Part shown: one piece after another, positions 8,532-15,155 of the stretch | Layout: the number at the start of each line of letters is the position of its first letter | Numbering within the stretch: position 1 is the stretch's first letter | IMG/VR virus record: IMGVR_UViG_3300047462_000721 | Coordinates: 1-22,694 of that record | Reading direction: 5' to 3' (one strand) | DNA length: 22,694 nt | From: a virus | Position numbers and translations under genes: made by a program | Notes under the pieces: generated by a model | The model's database searches: none | What the model saw: the letters and a program-made list of their open reading frames with translations, nothing else | Told to the model about the DNA's origin: nothing

Positions 8532-9212
8532 TCACGCTTCGCCGCCCTGCAGGTTGGCCAGGCACCGCCCCACATAACCCTTCGCGCACGTCAGTTGCGC
8601 GAGCGTACCGCTGGAACTGACCAGCTGCGTCAGATCGTCGCCATCCAATCCCTGGCCGGCCGTCACGATCCCCTGCCCGATCACCGCCTGCACCCCGGCA
8701 ACCGCAGCAGCGCTCGTCAGCAGCGCCGGATTGCCCGGCACCAGGCCACCTTGCGCCGAGGTCGCTGCAACCGCCCCGGATACGTCCGTGAACAACGCTG
8801 CCTGCGCGAGATCCGCAGTGACGCTTTCGGCAAGATCCGGCAGGAAATCGGCAAAGGACTGTGCCAGGTCGGCGACAACCGTGCAGGCGATCCGGTAGGG
8901 AATCCACCAGGGGCTGGAGAAATCCAGATCCAGTTCGGTAATGATGGCGGAATACGCGAACGCGTTCCAGGCGAGTTCCAGCGTCTGGCCCGCGGCGCGC
9001 ATCGCATCGAACGCGCGGGCCCGATCCGCGGCGTCGGTGCCGCTGATGATGCCGGACCATCGCAGCGCCGCATCGTCGCGGCCAAGCGTGTCGATCACCC
9101 GCGCGCCGCCGATCAGCCGATGCACCACCACACGCTGCGCGCCGCCGAACCGCACGCCGGCCGGGATCTCGAATCCGTCGAGTTCCAGACCGCCCAGCGT
9201 CAACACGGCCAT
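8532..9212 (-). CDS. Tail/baseplate hub-associated protein (Mu gpN/gp43 position)
   Basis: A 226-aa protein between the tape-measure-position gene and LysM. The N-terminal half (residues ~1-115) is beta-rich: FGGAQRVVVHRLIGGARVID, RWSGIISGTDAADRARAFDA and SSPWWIPYRIACTV. This resembles the N-terminal domain of tail proteins that occupy the gpN/DNA-circularisation or distal-tail slot in Mu-like phages. The C-terminal half is Ala/Gly-rich and helical. The ATG at 9212 overlaps the previous stop by one base (TGATG), with a G-rich stretch upstream. A structural role at the tube-baseplate junction is inferred from position; I cannot confirm the family. Confidence 0.65.
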   Translation of the reverse strand: MAVLTLGGLELDGFEIPAGVRFGGAQRVVVHRLIGGARVIDTLGRDDAALRWSGIISGTDAADRARAFDAMRAAGQTLELAWNAFAYSAIITELDLDFSSPWWIPYRIACTVVADLAQSFADFLPDLAESVTADLAQAALFTDVSGAVAATSAQGGLVPGNPALLTSAAAVAGVQAVIGQGIVTAGQGLDGDDLTQLVSSSGTLAQLTCAKGYVGRCLANLQGGEA

Positions 9213-10309
9213 CACCCCCCCACGGTCGGTCCCGGCATCAGCGCAGTGCGTCGCCCGTCGAAGCTCGTCGGACCGGCACTGGCCCGCCCCGCCTCACGGT
9301 TCAGAAAGCGCGACATCCAGCGGCCGACCAGCATGCCATCCAGATAAACATCCCCTTCGCCCGGTCCCTGCTGCGCAGCCGCTTCCGTGCGCGGCGCAGC
9401 CGGCGCGGATTGCTGCGGGGCCGGTAAATCGTCCGGGGCCGCCGCCGCACCCGCCGCATCTGTCGGCGGATAGGGCGAAGGGGCAGGGGTCCATGCCGGC
9501 GGCGCAAAATACGGCGCACCGGCGGCAACACCCGGTTCCGGACCAGCCCACGGGAACGGCGCTGGTGCGCCAGCCTGCCCCAGATCCGCCGCCGGAAGCC
9601 GCTGCGGCAGGTCGGCCATGCGCACCGGCGCGATCATCGCCGGCGCCGCCGCGGCGGCCGGCATGGCCGACTGTCCGGCCGGCGCTGTCGGCGAGACCGG
9701 CGGCGCAATCGGGACCGAAATTTCCACCTTGCCTGCCGCCACCACAGCATCAGGGGGCGGTGGTTCGGGGCCGCGCACGTCTGCCCGCACCGGCGCGACA
9801 GGCCAGACCGGCGGCTGCTGCCCCGGTGACGCCGGCCGCTCCGCCACCGCCGAGGCGGCAGGCCGCTCGGGCGCTGCCGCAGCGGCGCCGGCGTCCGTGT
9901 CGCGAACAGGTGCCGCCGCGCGCGTCTCGCCCGCCTCCGCCGGCAGCTTCACCGGCAGCGCCGGCGGATCAACCGGCGTCCCGCTCGCCATCGCCGCCTC
10001 CATCACGCGCCAGCCTGGCGAATCATCCCCCGCCGCCTCGTCCACACGCGCGTCGAATCGCGCCTGCCCAAACTCCGGATCGCCGGCCTCCGCCGTCGGG
10101 GCGGTGGCCGTCGCGGCTTTTTCAACCTCCGCCGGCCGCACCGGGGGCGGCGCCACCGCCGCGCACCCCGCCTCCCGCAGGCGCTGCACCGGGATGCCGG
10201 CCTGCAGGATCGCGGAAAACCGCGCCAGATCCTGCCGGGCGCGCTCCATGGACGCGGAAACGCCATCGTCCAAAGCCAGCGAGACGCCGATCTCATACGC
10301 GTCGCTCAT
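9212..10309 (-). CDS. Ala/Pro-rich protein in the tape-measure slot
   Basis: A 365-aa protein located where contractile phages keep the tape-measure gene, after the tail chaperones and before the hub genes. The ends look ordered. Residues 1-50 (YEIGVSLALDDGVSASMERA...) resemble the start of some tape-measure proteins. The last ~48 residues (DVYLDGMLVGRWMSRFLNRE, then FDGRRTALMPG) look like a conserved tail-tip motif. The middle ~270 residues are dominated by Ala and Pro with almost no predicted helix or membrane segment, unlike the coiled-coil body of classical tape measures. The ATG overlaps the previous stop (ATGA), with GGAGG upstream. It may be a short, unusual tape measure, or another tail protein. 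Confidence 0.55.
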   Translation of the reverse strand: MSDAYEIGVSLALDDGVSASMERARQDLARFSAILQAGIPVQRLREAGCAAVAPPPVRPAEVEKAATATAPTAEAGDPEFGQARFDARVDEAAGDDSPGWRVMEAAMASGTPVDPPALPVKLPAEAGETRAAAPVRDTDAGAAAAAPERPAASAVAERPASPGQQPPVWPVAPVRADVRGPEPPPPDAVVAAGKVEISVPIAPPVSPTAPAGQSAMPAAAAAPAMIAPVRMADLPQRLPAADLGQAGAPAPFPWAGPEPGVAAGAPYFAPPAWTPAPSPYPPTDAAGAAAAPDDLPAPQQSAPAAPRTEAAAQQGPGEGDVYLDGMLVGRWMSRFLNREAGRASAGPTSFDGRRTALMPGPTVGG

Positions 10310-10596
10310 CCGGCCTCCCCCCGCATCGTCGCCGCCACCGCCCGAGCCACCTCGGGCGCCACGGCGCGCGCAGCGTCCTCCAGCGGCGCCAAGGGCGGCA
10401 TCCCCACCCGTCCGGTTTCCGCGTCAATCACCGCGCGAGACCGGCTGGCCAGGCGCAGCCGGTTTCCCTGCACGGACATCTCTAGCTCAGCCGGCAGGCC
10501 CCGCGCGGCCAGCGCCGCCTGCACCGCCTGCATCAGCCGCGCGCCGCCGGCCAGCAGGGCTGCGCTCAGCCGCGCTTCCAGCGTCGTGTTGCCCAA
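10306..10596 (-). CDS. Small tail-region protein of unknown function
   Basis: A 96-aa, Ala/Arg-rich protein between the tail chaperone genes and the tape-measure-position gene. The N-terminal half is helical (LEARLSAALLAGGARLMQAV). A middle beta segment (LEMSVQGNRLRLASRSRAVI) and a helical C-terminus (VAPEVARAVAATMRGEAG) follow. The best start is TTG 10596, with GAGGGA about 11 bases upstream; an in-frame stop lies just beyond it. Its first 31 bases overlap the frameshifted chaperone reading frame, and its stop overlaps the next ATG. I do not recognise the family. Its position suggests a tail-assembly role. Confidence 0.6.
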   Translation of the reverse strand: MGNTTLEARLSAALLAGGARLMQAVQAALAARGLPAELEMSVQGNRLRLASRSRAVIDAETGRVGMPPLAPLEDAARAVAPEVARAVAATMRGEAG

Positions 10597-11080
10597 TCGA
10601 ATTCCAATCCCTCAAACCGGCCCATGGCGACCACCCAGGCCAGCCGCTCGTCCGCCGGCAGGCAGAACGCCACGTCAAACGGCACCCCGTTCCGAACCAG
10701 GTAGAGACAATCGACCAGATCGGGGTGCCCGCTCAGTTTCCCTGGGCGGCACTCCCGATCTGCGGCGCCGGGTTGGCCGCAAGCGCTGCCGCGGCCGCGG
10801 CAATGCCGGAATCACCCAGCCGCGCCACAAGTGCCTCAATCTGTCCCTCCGTCACCGGCGGCGGCACCGGAACGGAATCGATCATGCCGACCGAGGCCGC
10901 CAGCATCGCCATGCCGAGATACGCATTGTTCTGCGAAAGCACCGGCCCGATCGCCTTGAACAGTCGCAACCGGTCCAGCGCCGTTATCCGCCGCAGCGTC
11001 AGCTCCCGCCCGTCCGCATCGCGAACGCTCACCGTCGCTGCGGCGGCAGCGACAATCTGCGCGCTCGGGGACGCCGTCAA
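10566..11080 (-). CDS. Tail assembly chaperone, frameshifted long form (gpGT-like)
   Basis: The predicted product is 171 aa: the 115-residue short chaperone plus a 56-residue extension read after a -1 slip at 10736-10742. The extension (LSGHPDLVDCLYLVRNGVPF, FCLPADERLAWVVAMGRFEG, LEFDWATRRWKRG) is clearly protein-like. It has no sensible start codon or ribosome-binding site of its own, and it ends at a TGA at 10566. This mirrors the lambda G/GT and P2 E/E' arrangement, where a few percent of ribosomes make a fusion that recruits tube subunits to the tape measure. The extension resembles the small T-domain proteins that follow chaperone genes. The fusion itself is inference from the signal and the reading frames. 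Confidence 0.8.
10681..10742 (-). promoter_or_regulatory. Programmed -1 ribosomal frameshift signal
   Basis: Three elements are directly visible on the minus strand. First, a heptamer GGGAAAC (10736-10742), phased G GGA AAC in the short chaperone frame and directly followed by its TGA stop. Second, a 6-base spacer (10730-10735). Third, a perfect 9-bp stem GGCACCCCG/CGGGGTGCC (10721-10729 with 10681-10689) around a 31-base loop. Heptamer type, spacer length and stem match the known design of bacterial and phage -1 frameshift sites; lambda uses GGGAAAG. It joins the two chaperone frames. Confidence 0.88.
10733..11080 (-). CDS. Tail assembly chaperone, short form (gpG-like)
   Basis: A 115-aa protein immediately after the tube gene, the conserved slot of tail assembly chaperones. 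The N-terminal half has VSVRDADGRELTLRRITALD and RLRLFKAIGPVLSQNNAYLG. The C-terminal half is Ala-rich with VTEGQIEALVARLGDSG. It would bind the tape-measure protein and keep it soluble during tail assembly. The likely start is TTG 11080, overlapping the tube stop; an alternative GTG 17 codons downstream lacks a ribosome-binding site. Its last codons contain the slippery heptamer, so it is made by ribosomes that do not shift. Confidence 0.78.
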   Translation of the reverse strand: MTASPSAQIVAAAAATVSVRDADGRELTLRRITALDRLRLFKAIGPVLSQNNAYLGMAMLAASVGMIDSVPVPPPVTEGQIEALVARLGDSGIAAAAAALAANPAPQIGSAAQGN

Positions 11081-11505
11081 AGCCGCTGTCTCTGCGTCGC
11101 AAAGAATTCCAGCTTCTGCTTCACCGTGGAATCGCCCTTCCAGCTGCCCGCATTCGCCAGCTTGAACACCACATTGCTGTATTGGTAGGTCGATGTGGAG
11201 CCGTCCACCTCGGCCACATACTGATACACCGTTCCCGCCGGCATCGATCCTTGGTTCAGGAAGATCAGCTCGGCCGCCGCGATGAAATCATCCACCGTGC
11301 TGGTGCCGCGCTCCACCTCGAAACTGCCCTCCCAGCCCTTCGGCAGTTCGGCACCCATCGGGATTCCGTCCAGCCGGTCCAGCCGCACCGATTGCGTGAT
11401 CTGCCGGCTTTCGAACCCGGTGACATAGGTCAGATCGACGCGACCCTGTGGACCCATCACCACAAGCTGGCAATCGCGCCCGATCGAAAAGGAATTGATC
11501 GGCAT
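11077..11505 (-). CDS. Tail tube protein
   Basis: A 142-aa protein directly after the sheath gene. Size and beta-rich pattern fit contractile tail tubes of the Mu gpM / P2 FII superfamily: MPINSFSIGRDCQLVVMGPQ, DLTYVTGFESRQITQSVRLD, GIPMGAELPKGWEGSFEVER, and a final strand STVKQKLEFFATQRQ. It would polymerise into the inner tube through which DNA passes. ATG 11505 has GGGAGA about nine bases upstream. The 46-bp gap to the sheath gene contains nothing else of note. Assignment rests on gene order plus these motifs. Confidence 0.88.
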   Translation of the reverse strand: MPINSFSIGRDCQLVVMGPQGRVDLTYVTGFESRQITQSVRLDRLDGIPMGAELPKGWEGSFEVERGTSTVDDFIAAAELIFLNQGSMPAGTVYQYVAEVDGSTSTYQYSNVVFKLANAGSWKGDSTVKQKLEFFATQRQRL

Positions 11506-11551: not shown

Positions 11552-13123
11552 TCAGGAGGTGCCTGCAGGCAGCACCTGCCGCTGCACGATCACGGTCTGG
11601 CCGCCCTCCACATTGACGATGAATTTCTCGTTGATGCTCTGATACTGCACCTGCGCGTCGCTCTGCACGAACCCCAGGCTGGTGCGGCTCTGCGGATTGT
11701 TGCTGGTATCGCAGATCACCGAAAACGGCGGCGAACCATCCAGGCTTCCCAGCACACCCTGCGAAAACAGGTTCTGCAGGTAACTCAGCTGCGTGGACCG
11801 GATCTGCTGGAACAAGCCGCCATTGATCACCTGGCCAACGAACTGCCCCATTCCCGCTGCCAGCGTCGCCGCAATATAGTTGGTCAGCCTGGTATAATTG
11901 TCGCCGTCGATCGCCGGATTGGAAGACGTGTTGTGGCCGCAGCGAACACCCCAATACGCACCGCCCGGCTGCGGATTGCTGATCACGTCGATCCCGTTCT
12001 GGAACAGCACCTCCAGCTCCGCATCGCTGTAGGTGCTTGTCTGCCCGCTGCCCGGCACGCCGGAGCGCTGGGTGCCAACCACGCTATACAGCGGCTTGTT
12101 CAGGCTGGATTGCTCGGGCGAGAGGTTCGCCAGCCGGCCGGCCACGAACCCCTGCGGCGAGATCAGCCTGGTCAGCCCGTTGGCCTGATCGTTCCAGAAG
12201 ATCCAGTCGCCGAACATCAGCTTTGCGGCGTAGGAATCCAGGCCCGCCGCCTGCTTGGTGGAAACCGCGTCAGCGATCGCATCGCCGGGCGGTCCCGTCA
12301 GGATCATGTAGATTCCCTCGGAAAGCCCGAACGCCGCCTCTGTCGTCCATTGCGTCGGGTCCGACACATCCGCCAGCAGGCCGATGCCGCAGCCCTGGGA
12401 TCGCAGCGCATACATGCCCGTACGCGGCAGCGTATCCTGCCCGACCATTGCGGCGCTCGTCACGCCGCTCGCACCATCGCTGCCGCCGCTCAGCGCCAAC
12501 GGTCCCTGGGCCGTCGGCACGCTGGCCAGCGCCGTGCCCAGCGTCGCCACCACAAGCTGCGATGGTCCGCGCAGCGGTCCGTTGCCAAGGTTGATGGCGT
12601 TCACAAGGGTTTGCCAGAACGCAGCCGGGGTAGGGGCGGGCAGGTTGGTAAACACCTCCGGCACCATCCCCGGCATGGCCAGAACCGCCTGCCATTGCCC
12701 CGCCGGCGCTGCTGGACTCAGCGTGATCGTGATGCTGTTGCCCAGCGATCCGGTGTACCGGGCGCTCAGCAGCACGGCAAACGCGCTGCCCGTCGCCGCG
12801 ATCGTCAGGCTCGCCGCGATATCGGTGCCGTCCGTTACCCGAACGCAGCGAAAATCCGTGGCGCCCTGCTGCACCGCAGCCGCCACCGCGGTGCCCATGT
12901 CATAGGTCCGCACCACAACCGGACCGAACGCGGCGGCATAATCCGCCATGGTGCCGATCGCCACCGGCTGGTTCACCGGGCCCCAGCTCGCGGTTCCCAC
13001 AACGCCCACCACGTTCGTCGGCACGCCGTTCAGAACCAGGTTCTGCGGCGGCACGATCTGCACATACAGGTCCGGCACCACGAGTGACGTGGTGTTCAAT
13101 GTGCCCTGCTGATATATCGGCAT
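11552..13123 (-). CDS. Tail sheath protein
   Basis: A 523-aa protein of the contractile tail sheath family. The N-terminus (NVVGVVGTASWGPVNQPVAI, residues ~37-56) is the typical start of domain I, followed by a variable outer domain. The C-terminus carries the conserved sheath region GDNYTRLTNYIAATLAAGMG, QFVGQVINGGLFQQIRSTQL and the final strand region ERQ-like NEKFIVNVEGGQTVIVQRQV. Length is normal for the family. ATG 13123 has GGGAGGGG upstream. Its presence, with tube and baseplate genes, establishes the myovirus-type tail. Confidence 0.92.
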   Translation of the reverse strand: MPIYQQGTLNTTSLVVPDLYVQIVPPQNLVLNGVPTNVVGVVGTASWGPVNQPVAIGTMADYAAAFGPVVVRTYDMGTAVAAAVQQGATDFRCVRVTDGTDIAASLTIAATGSAFAVLLSARYTGSLGNSITITLSPAAPAGQWQAVLAMPGMVPEVFTNLPAPTPAAFWQTLVNAINLGNGPLRGPSQLVVATLGTALASVPTAQGPLALSGGSDGASGVTSAAMVGQDTLPRTGMYALRSQGCGIGLLADVSDPTQWTTEAAFGLSEGIYMILTGPPGDAIADAVSTKQAAGLDSYAAKLMFGDWIFWNDQANGLTRLISPQGFVAGRLANLSPEQSSLNKPLYSVVGTQRSGVPGSGQTSTYSDAELEVLFQNGIDVISNPQPGGAYWGVRCGHNTSSNPAIDGDNYTRLTNYIAATLAAGMGQFVGQVINGGLFQQIRSTQLSYLQNLFSQGVLGSLDGSPPFSVICDTSNNPQSRTSLGFVQSDAQVQYQSINEKFIVNVEGGQTVIVQRQVLPAGTS

Positions 13124-14219: not shown

Positions 14220-15155
14220 CTAGATGCAGTTGTCGTCTTCACGCCGGGCGCGTAGATACAAATCCCACTCACGCTCCAGCTCGGGCTTGTTTCCGGCCCA
14301 TTCCAGCACGCCGTAGCTGTTCCGCTTCAAATCGGTATCCGGATCGAATCCATGCCGGACAAAGATCTCCCACCGGCCCAGATAACCGCGATTCTGTTTC
14401 GATCCATGGAACCGGTGCTCGATGATCCCCGGCAGCGCGCCCAGCCTGCCGTTCACATAGCGCATGGCGCGCTGTTGCCAGCGCAGCAGGTGCGCCTTGT
14501 AGGCGGCGCTGGTGCCGCCAGGCCAGCTTCGCTCCACCAGGCCCGCCATCGCCATCGCCATGTGATGGTCGGCACTGCCCATGCCGGCCAGTTCGAACAG
14601 CCCGCCGGTCCAGTCCAGCATCTCGCGCCGACAGGCCCAGAAATACCCGCTATGAGGATAATCCGCGTATCCGCCATCGAACTTCCAGAACCGCCTGGAC
14701 CCGGCAACCAGCGGCGCCCCGGCCATGTATTGCCCGGCGAAGGAATGGTGTACCCCGATCAGCTCATCATTCGGGCCCAGATCCAGCGCCCGCGTCCAGG
14801 TCTGCACCACCCGGTAATGCTGCAGATACTCCACCACCTCCCGCGCCCAGCCCGGCTTGCGGTGCCACACATCGGCGTCGCCCCAGGCGACATACTCCGC
14901 ATCGGGAATGCGCTTGATTCCCTCGTTAAGCGCGCATTCCTTGCTCCAGGACCAGCTGTCGGCACGCAGTCCCACGTGATTCACATGCGGCAGCGCGCAG
15001 GCGAACTCCCGCTTGCCATACTGCACCTCAACCACCGTCAGTTGCGCGCCCGAATCCAGAACGTGGCTGACCCAGTCGCGATAATGCCGGTCCGGCGTCG
15101 CCCAGCGCAGCGGGTTGAACCGCGCCGTCACAATATGAAGCCGGTCTGGCTGCAC
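14220..15155 (-). CDS. Glycosyltransferase-like protein within the structural operon
   Basis: A 311-aa protein with a GT-A type layout. An N-terminal Rossmann-like start (LHIVTARFNPLRW) is followed by SKECALNEGIKRIPDAEYVA and then WGDADVW at residues 91-97, a DxD motif expected to hold the metal and nucleotide sugar. A later block, GYFWACRREMLDWTGGLFEL then GMGSADHHMAMAMAG (170-205), resembles the acceptor/catalytic segment of galactosyltransferase-like enzymes. The end has HGFDPDTDLKRN. No membrane segment or signal peptide is seen, so it is cytoplasmic. GTG 15155 has GGAG at good spacing. It sits between head and tail genes. Substrate is unknown: a virion protein or a host surface sugar are both possible. 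Confidence 0.75.
   Translation of the reverse strand: MQPDRLHIVTARFNPLRWATPDRHYRDWVSHVLDSGAQLTVVEVQYGKREFACALPHVNHVGLRADSWSWSKECALNEGIKRIPDAEYVAWGDADVWHRKPGWAREVVEYLQHYRVVQTWTRALDLGPNDELIGVHHSFAGQYMAGAPLVAGSRRFWKFDGGYADYPHSGYFWACRREMLDWTGGLFELAGMGSADHHMAMAMAGLVERSWPGGTSAAYKAHLLRWQQRAMRYVNGRLGALPGIIEHRFHGSKQNRGYLGRWEIFVRHGFDPDTDLKRNSYGVLEWAGNKPELEREWDLYLRARREDDNCI

What the first reader, a model, noticed from the sequence alone, without database searches (positions are those of the whole stretch)
10566..10742. Complete -1 programmed frameshift between two tail chaperone frames
The heptamer GGGAAAC is in the correct phase, ends exactly at the zero-frame TGA, and is followed by a 6-base spacer and a perfect 9-bp stem. 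The -1 frame then encodes 56 protein-like residues with no start codon of their own. This predicts a 115-aa short form and a 171-aa fusion, the G/GT arrangement of lambda. Automatic annotation would miss the extension entirely. GGGAAAC differs from lambda's GGGAAAG in the last base.
Basis: partly seen in the sequence, partly recalled or inferred. Interest (0 to 1): 0.72.

Follow-up and report, generated by a model that had tools for sequence, protein, structure and literature searches.

The report
Conserved frameshift in phage tail chaperone

Summary
On the minus strand, a 115-codon frame ends GGA AAC TGA inside G_GGA_AAC, followed by a 6-nt spacer and a perfect 9-bp stem. The -1 frame then runs 56 codons with no start codon near its beginning. 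Of 181 related loci (window included; Acetobacteraceae and Rhodospirillales MAGs, IMG/VR), 178 have GGGAAAC or AAAAAAC at exactly this point; the other three have GGGAAAT, AAAAAAT or AAAAAAA. Codons in the heptamer and stem are frozen at synonymous sites, and this stops sharply after the stem. The stem shows compensatory changes, and Pantoea, Aquitalea and Paraburkholderia relatives pair with different arm sequences. The zero-frame protein lies downstream of the sheath gene, matches tail-assembly-chaperone families weakly, and its confident model has the HK97 chaperone as best PDB match. Best reading: -1 programmed ribosomal frameshifting making a G/GT-type chaperone pair in a contractile-tailed phage lineage. 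It differs from lambda in the conserved RNA stem (lambda-type sites are described as lacking stimulators) and the AAC second codon. I found no report of the frameshift in this lineage; GenBank and RefSeq leave the extension blank or call a fragment. No experiment exists. It is a new member of a known kind.

The parts
10733..11080 (-). zero-frame tail assembly chaperone (G-like), 115 aa, TTG start overlapping the stop of the upstream gene (TTGA), stop TGA 10735-10733
   Evidence: PHROG_20383 in 29/29 relatives, tail assembly chaperone PHROG_508 in 11/29; AlphaFold pLDDT 91.7, best PDB match HK97 tail assembly chaperone 2ob9
10736..10742 (-). slippery heptamer G_GGA_AAC in phase X_XXY_YYZ
   Evidence: GGGAAAC or AAAAAAC in 178 of 181 loci, three other valid XXXYYYZ
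10730..10735 (-). 6-nt spacer TGAGCG, beginning with the zero-frame stop TGA (10735-10733)
   Evidence: stop directly after the heptamer in 160 of 181 loci, 18-39 nt later in 21
10721..10729 (-). 5' arm of stimulatory stem, GGCACCCCG
   Evidence: 95.7% of cells paired over 59 non-redundant sequences, 4 pairs with double changes, 0/500 shuffles as high
10681..10689 (-). 3' arm of stimulatory stem, CGGGGTGCC (loop 31 nt)
   Evidence: Gly GGG and Val GTG codons frozen in 58/58
10566..10742 (-). -1 frame extension (T-like domain): 56 residues after the shift (from CTG at 10736-10734 to 10569), stop TGA 10568-10566; no start codon of its own near its beginning
   Evidence: relatives in 61 of 150 genomes of the same family; confident small helical domain, pLDDT 89.9
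11077..11505 (-). upstream gene, probable tail tube (142 aa), by position after the sheath; inferred
   Evidence: PHROG_12993, function unknown
11552..13123 (-). tail sheath protein
   Evidence: PHROG_23 tail sheath E=2.9e-52; Pfam Gp18_domIII_N
9212..10309 (-). 365-aa Ala/Pro-rich protein, candidate short tape measure by position; inferred only
   Evidence: no usable profile match; a 254-393 aa protein sits in the same place in 11 relatives

Best explanation
[quoted passage not shown] Most ribosomes read GGA AAC TGA and release the 115-aa chaperone (G). A minority have tRNA-Gly and tRNA-Asn on GGA AAC when the 9-bp stem stalls or tenses the ribosome, slip back one base to GGG AAA, bypass the TGA and continue for 56 codons, giving a 171-aa G-T fusion. 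By analogy with lambda, G coats the tape measure protein and the T part of the fusion recruits the tube subunit. Shown by sequence and comparison: heptamer, phase, spacer, stem, frame relation, their conservation, and chaperone-like sequence and fold. Inferred: that the fusion is made, in what ratio, that the stem stimulates, and the binding partners.
For: Heptamer conservation: 140 GGGAAAC, 38 AAAAAAC, 1 each GGGAAAT, AAAAAAT and AAAAAAA among 181 loci found by protein search alone. No other XXX sequence is seen, although GGG and AAA differ at three bases and the tree needs about 6 switches (only one forced by strong branches). Synonymous freezing: Gly GGG 57/57 (background 25%), Lys AAA 58/58 (24%), Pro CCC 54/58 (15%), Gly GGG 58/58 and Val GTG 58/58 in the stem; normal from codon 21 on. 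Stem covariation; L197 re-pairs as GGACGCC/GGCGTCC; L207 keeps GGCACCCC in another codon phase; Pantoea and Aquitalea use GAACCCCG/CGGGGTTC and Paraburkholderia GGGACTC/GGGGTCCC. No ATG near the start of the extension in 179/181 and no conserved alternative start position. Chaperone identity: PHROG_508 and PHROG_344, HK97 chaperone 2ob9 as best of 350,542 PDB chains (E 0.046, prob 0.87). Genomic place downstream of sheath and putative tube, upstream of tail and baseplate genes. An inducible phage, Komagataeibacter phiKX1, has the same signal.
Against: No protein or reporter data. The chaperone assignment is weak by sequence (best E 6e-4; window protein E 0.07), and the extension matches no named T-domain family. 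The window's stem folds only modestly better than shuffles (z -1.56). One distant relative (L182) has the extension in a different relative frame with a possible start of its own. AAC is a poor second codon in E. coli compared with AAG (PMC5009743).
Confidence: 0.93

Rival explanations
1. The extension is a separate gene translated by reinitiation or from a non-canonical start (for example CTG right after the heptamer, or an internal ATG or GTG); the heptamer is incidental.
For: CTG is the first codon after the heptamer in most loci; GenBank calls a separate ORF from an internal ATG in phiKX1, as does the table for one Pantoea plasmid; L182 has ATG with GGAG upstream.
Against: In loci with the stop 18-39 nt later the codon is usually CTC, CTT or CTN without a start role. 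No start is conserved in position; 161/181 have none within -40 to +8 codons. It cannot explain GGG/AAA and AAA codon freezing, nor the switch between only GGG and AAA in the XXX position, nor the residues before any internal start being conserved (K2, L3, P7).
Confidence: 0.04
2. Transcriptional slippage: RNA polymerase slips on the homopolymer run and the fusion is made from edited mRNA.
For: 38 loci have A6 (AAAAAAC), and A-runs can slip in transcription.
Against: 140 of 181 loci, the window included, have GGGAAAC with no run longer than 3; transcriptional slippage needs longer runs (general knowledge). The covarying RNA stem at ribosomal spacing points to translation.
Confidence: 0.01
3. 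A pseudogene or sequencing error: the gene was once one frame and is broken by one base here.
For: A single-base frame break at the end of a gene can look like this.
Against: The same break at the same base in 181 loci from many samples, both frames under protein-level conservation.
Confidence: 0.01
4. The frameshift is real, but the stem conservation is only a by-product of the HP...NGVP protein motif.
For: The arms lie over the most conserved peptide positions, His-Pro and Gly-Val-Pro.
Against: Third codon positions in the arms are frozen while those next to them vary freely; compensatory double changes, including synonymous GTG to GTC or GTT matched by changes on the other side (L197, L221, L225); L207 keeps the same eight bases in a different codon phase encoding Gly-Thr-Pro.
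Confidence: 0.05

Closest known systems
Phage lambda G/GT -1 frameshift (G_GGA_AAG), Levin 1993, Xu 2004, 2013, 2014
   Same: Short chaperone plus -1 fusion, heptamer X_XXY_YYZ with GGG AAA, position after the tube gene and before the putative tape measure gene
   Different: Last base C, not G; zero-frame stop directly after the heptamer; a 9-bp covarying stem 6 nt downstream, whereas such shifts in certain tailed phages are described as not involving stimulators (PMC5009743); contractile tail; no detectable sequence similarity of the T part to named families
P2 E/E' and Mu gp41 tail chaperone frameshifts
   Same: Contractile-tailed phages with the frameshifted chaperone between tube and tape measure genes
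   Different: Mu uses -2 (PMC5009743, PMC2628397); P2 uses a different heptamer (own knowledge); no sequence similarity found here
Haloarchaeal tailed viruses HCTV-1 (G_GGA_AAC) and HCTV-2 (A_AAA_AAC)
   Same: The same two heptamers at the G-T site (PMC5009743)
   Different: Archaeal siphoviruses; no homology tested; whether they have a stem was not checked
Komagataeibacter phages phiKX1 and phiKX2 (LC644975, LC644976)
   Same: Mitomycin-inducible myovirus-type phages with a homologous chaperone and extension; in phiKX1, AAAAAACTGA and the same GGCACCCCG/CGGGGTGCC stem
   Different: Extension clearly diverged (36% identical to the window's); annotated as two separate hypothetical proteins; the describing paper (PMC8566455) does not mention a frameshift; phiKX2 site not read here

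Membership tests
[quoted passage not shown]
dsDNA phage tail assembly chaperone G/GT frameshift genes | Overlapping downstream frame in -1 register, open past the zero-frame stop, without its own start | tested here: met
dsDNA phage tail assembly chaperone G/GT frameshift genes | Upstream product related to tail assembly chaperones | tested here: met
   weak PHROG_508/344 matches in relatives; HK97 chaperone 2ob9 best PDB fold match, E 0.046, prob 0.87; BFVD matches include several named tail assembly chaperones. No Pfam chaperone family matched
dsDNA phage tail assembly chaperone G/GT frameshift genes | Location between major tail (tube) gene and tape measure gene | tested here: inconclusive
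   sheath and other tail/baseplate genes identified, but tube and tape measure are placed by position only; in Paraburkholderia L225 a protein annotated as tape measure lies downstream
dsDNA phage tail assembly chaperone G/GT frameshift genes | Frame relation kept across relatives | tested here: met
   181 of 181 aligned loci; one distant exception (L182) and one with a shifted heptamer (L206 CCCTTTG) outside that set
dsDNA phage tail assembly chaperone G/GT frameshift genes | T part homologous to a known T domain | tested here: inconclusive
   no family in Pfam, PHROGs or NCBIfam; only weak fold matches
dsDNA phage tail assembly chaperone G/GT frameshift genes | Both products made at a fixed ratio and needed for tail assembly | not testable with these tools
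   needs reporter, proteomics and genetics

The most novel reading that the evidence does not exclude
In this phage lineage the tail-chaperone frameshift follows a design unlike lambda's: a second codon (AAC) that is weak in E. coli is paired with an RNA stem kept by compensation across alpha-, beta- and gammaproteobacterial relatives, so that the stem, not the heptamer, sets the short-to-long chaperone ratio.
Probability: 0.4. Interest if true: 0.5.

Novelty: new member of a known kind. Interest (0 to 1): 0.36.

Why it matters
It adds a large, largely uncultured contractile-phage lineage to the G/GT frameshift story, with about 180 natural variants of one signal. Lambda-type sites are described as lacking stimulators; here the heptamer, spacer and a covarying stem are all conserved, and Z is almost always C (two T, one A, never G). 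That makes the contribution of stem versus heptamer to the chaperone ratio directly testable with natural variants. It also shows a systematic annotation gap: the second half of the fusion is missing from, or truncated in, the GenBank and RefSeq-derived annotations inspected, and from the protein family libraries searched.

Tried and rejected
(1) Host tRNA explanation for AAC instead of AAG: Acetobacteraceae MAG hosts do carry tRNA-Lys(CUU) as well as tRNA-Lys(UUU), which would make AAG less slippery. But Pantoea relatives also have AAAAAAC, and Enterobacterales are thought to have only the UUU tRNA (own knowledge), so this was dropped as a sufficient cause. (2) A pseudoknot with the region after the stem: synonymous sites are unconstrained from codon 21 on, so no partner is indicated. 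(3) An upper helix in the loop (codons 11 and 16): RNAalifold proposes 4 weak pairs in close relatives, not kept in the wider set. (4) Reinitiation, transcriptional slippage and pseudogene: see rivals. (5) Direct phage-database hits for the window's own proteins: none in 50,697 records; relatives appeared only through a distant homologue. (6) A class-wide search gave only the query genome, 1/289, so at that sensitivity the close family is confined to Acetobacteraceae; beta and gamma relatives came from tblastn on plasmids. (7) PDB sequence search with the chaperone profile: nothing.

Full report
Observation. Everything lies on the minus strand. The zero frame (TTG 11080 to TGA 10735-10733, 115 aa) ends ...GCC CAG GGA AAC TGA, so that G_GGA_AAC (10742-10736) is in the phase needed for tandem slippage and the stop follows at once. 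After a 6-nt spacer come GGCACCCCG and, 31 nt later, its exact complement CGGGGTGCC. The -1 frame reads on for 56 residues, LSGHPDLVDCLYLVRNGVPFDVAFCLPADERLAWVVAMGRFEGLEFDWATRRWKRG, to TGA at 10568-10566. It has no start codon between its last upstream stop and codon 8. The arithmetic of the finding (115 and 171 aa) is right.

Chance. The heptamer alone proves nothing: three copies in the window against two expected, two of them in phase in other genes. In-phase XXXYYYZ arises at 0.27% of codon positions, and a perfect 9-bp stem 4-9 nt behind a position at 0.6% of positions. The window's fold energy is only modestly better than shuffles (z -1.56). The case therefore rests on comparison.

Comparison. 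A protein search of IMG/VR with the extension gave 171 relatives, 80 kept. At the aligned first residue, 79 have GGGAAAC and one AAAAAAC. In 36 bacterial genome loci, all but one titled as Acetobacteraceae, Rhodospirillales or less specific alphaproteobacterial or proteobacterial MAGs (the exception is labelled Solirubrobacterales), 32 have GGGAAAC and 4 AAAAAAC. A profile search found the extension in 61 of 150 genomes sampled from the host family but only in the query genome among 289 of the class. Adding the loci from the family search, including distant ones, the tally over 181 is 140 GGGAAAC, 38 AAAAAAC and three other XXXYYYZ. Z is C in 178, T in 2, A in 1 and never G. The zero-frame stop is directly behind the heptamer in 160 and 18-39 nt later in 21, so an adjacent stop is usual but not required. 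These 181 loci are not all independent: some are near-copies from overlapping samples, which is why the tests below use dereplicated sets.

Selection on the RNA. In 58 dereplicated sequences, synonymous choice is frozen in the heptamer codons, in the 5' arm and in the 3' arm, and returns to background at codon 21, immediately after the stem. Over 59 non-redundant sequences 95.7% of stem cells pair; four pairs show double changes and no shuffle of 500 reaches this; slid registers fall to 38-50%. The clearest cases: L197 replaces two C-G pairs by G-C; L203 and L207 keep the arm GGC(G/A)CCCC in another codon phase; Aquitalea and Pantoea pair GAACCCCG with CGGGGTTC; Paraburkholderia pairs GGGACTC with GGGGTCCC. 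The stem is thus selected as RNA, and not only as the codons of HP and GVP.

What the proteins are. The gene follows a tail sheath gene and a putative tube gene and precedes a short Ala/Pro-rich protein and tail and baseplate genes. The chaperone matches PHROG_20383 (unknown) in all 29 relatives tested, and PHROG_508 tail assembly chaperone in 11, best E 6e-4. Its AlphaFold model is confident (91.7) and its best match in the PDB is the HK97 tail assembly chaperone 2ob9 (E 0.046, probability 0.87). The extension folds as three helices and a hairpin (89.9) but resembles nothing named.

Known relatives and annotation. No phage record matched the window's proteins. A distant homologue led to Komagataeibacter phages phiKX1 and phiKX2. 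phiKX1 has AAAAAACTGA plus the same stem, and its extension is annotated as a separate hypothetical protein from an internal ATG. The paper describing them, which reports myovirus-type particles, has no mention of a frameshift (PMC8566455). RefSeq-derived tables for six of seven plasmid relatives leave the extension blank (PLSDB tables are incomplete, so this is suggestive).

Mechanism. Tandem slippage on GGA AAC to GGG AAA, helped by the stem, gives G and G-T. [quoted passage not shown] coli. I therefore suggest, as inference, that a weak second codon is here combined with a stem. A host tRNA explanation was considered: the MAG hosts have tRNA-Lys(CUU). It is not sufficient, because Pantoea relatives also use AAC.

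Exceptions. L206 lacks the usual heptamer but has C_CCT_TTG in phase 15 nt upstream. L182 has the extension in the other relative frame with ATG and GGAG upstream, possibly a de-fused form.

Verdict. The finding is correct in its observation and its interpretation. The kind of system is well known; the lineage, the deeply conserved covarying stem and the annotation gap are the new parts. It remains a sequence-based prediction.

Noticed in passing
L182:1880-2180 (G011:C29): Distant relative without the heptamer: the extension is in a different relative frame, with an ATG and GGAG upstream inside the chaperone's end; possibly a separate gene or a +1 shift.
   Followed up: partly
L206 (G149:C5), minus strand near 2286-2301 of the reverse complement: Heptamer replaced by C_CCT_TTG in phase about 15 nt upstream of the usual place, a different slippery sequence in the same family.
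   Followed up: partly
window 9212-10309 minus: The only candidate tape measure is 365 aa, Ala/Pro-rich and without profile matches; 11 relatives have 254-393 aa proteins there, so tails may be unusually short, although phiKX1 has a 742-aa protein in that region.
   Followed up: partly
window 10306-10596 minus: The next gene may begin with TTG inside the extension (about 30 nt overlap), in a third frame.
   Followed up: no
-1 frame codons 9, 15 and 16 (window 10718-10716 and 10700-10695, minus): CTG and CTG GTC codons in the loop are also strongly frozen in close relatives, which the 9-bp stem does not explain.
   Followed up: partly
window 10468-10462 and 16897-16891 minus: Two more in-phase GGGAAAC copies inside other genes, within the number expected by chance.
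   Followed up: partly
L221, L223-L227: The same tail cassette sits on Pantoea megaplasmids and on Aquitalea and Paraburkholderia plasmids, hinting at prophage or phage-plasmid carriage far from the Acetobacteraceae.
   Followed up: partly
window 14220-15155 minus: A 311-aa ORF among head-tail genes has no PHROG match and by eye reads like a glycosyltransferase, an odd place for one.
   Followed up: no
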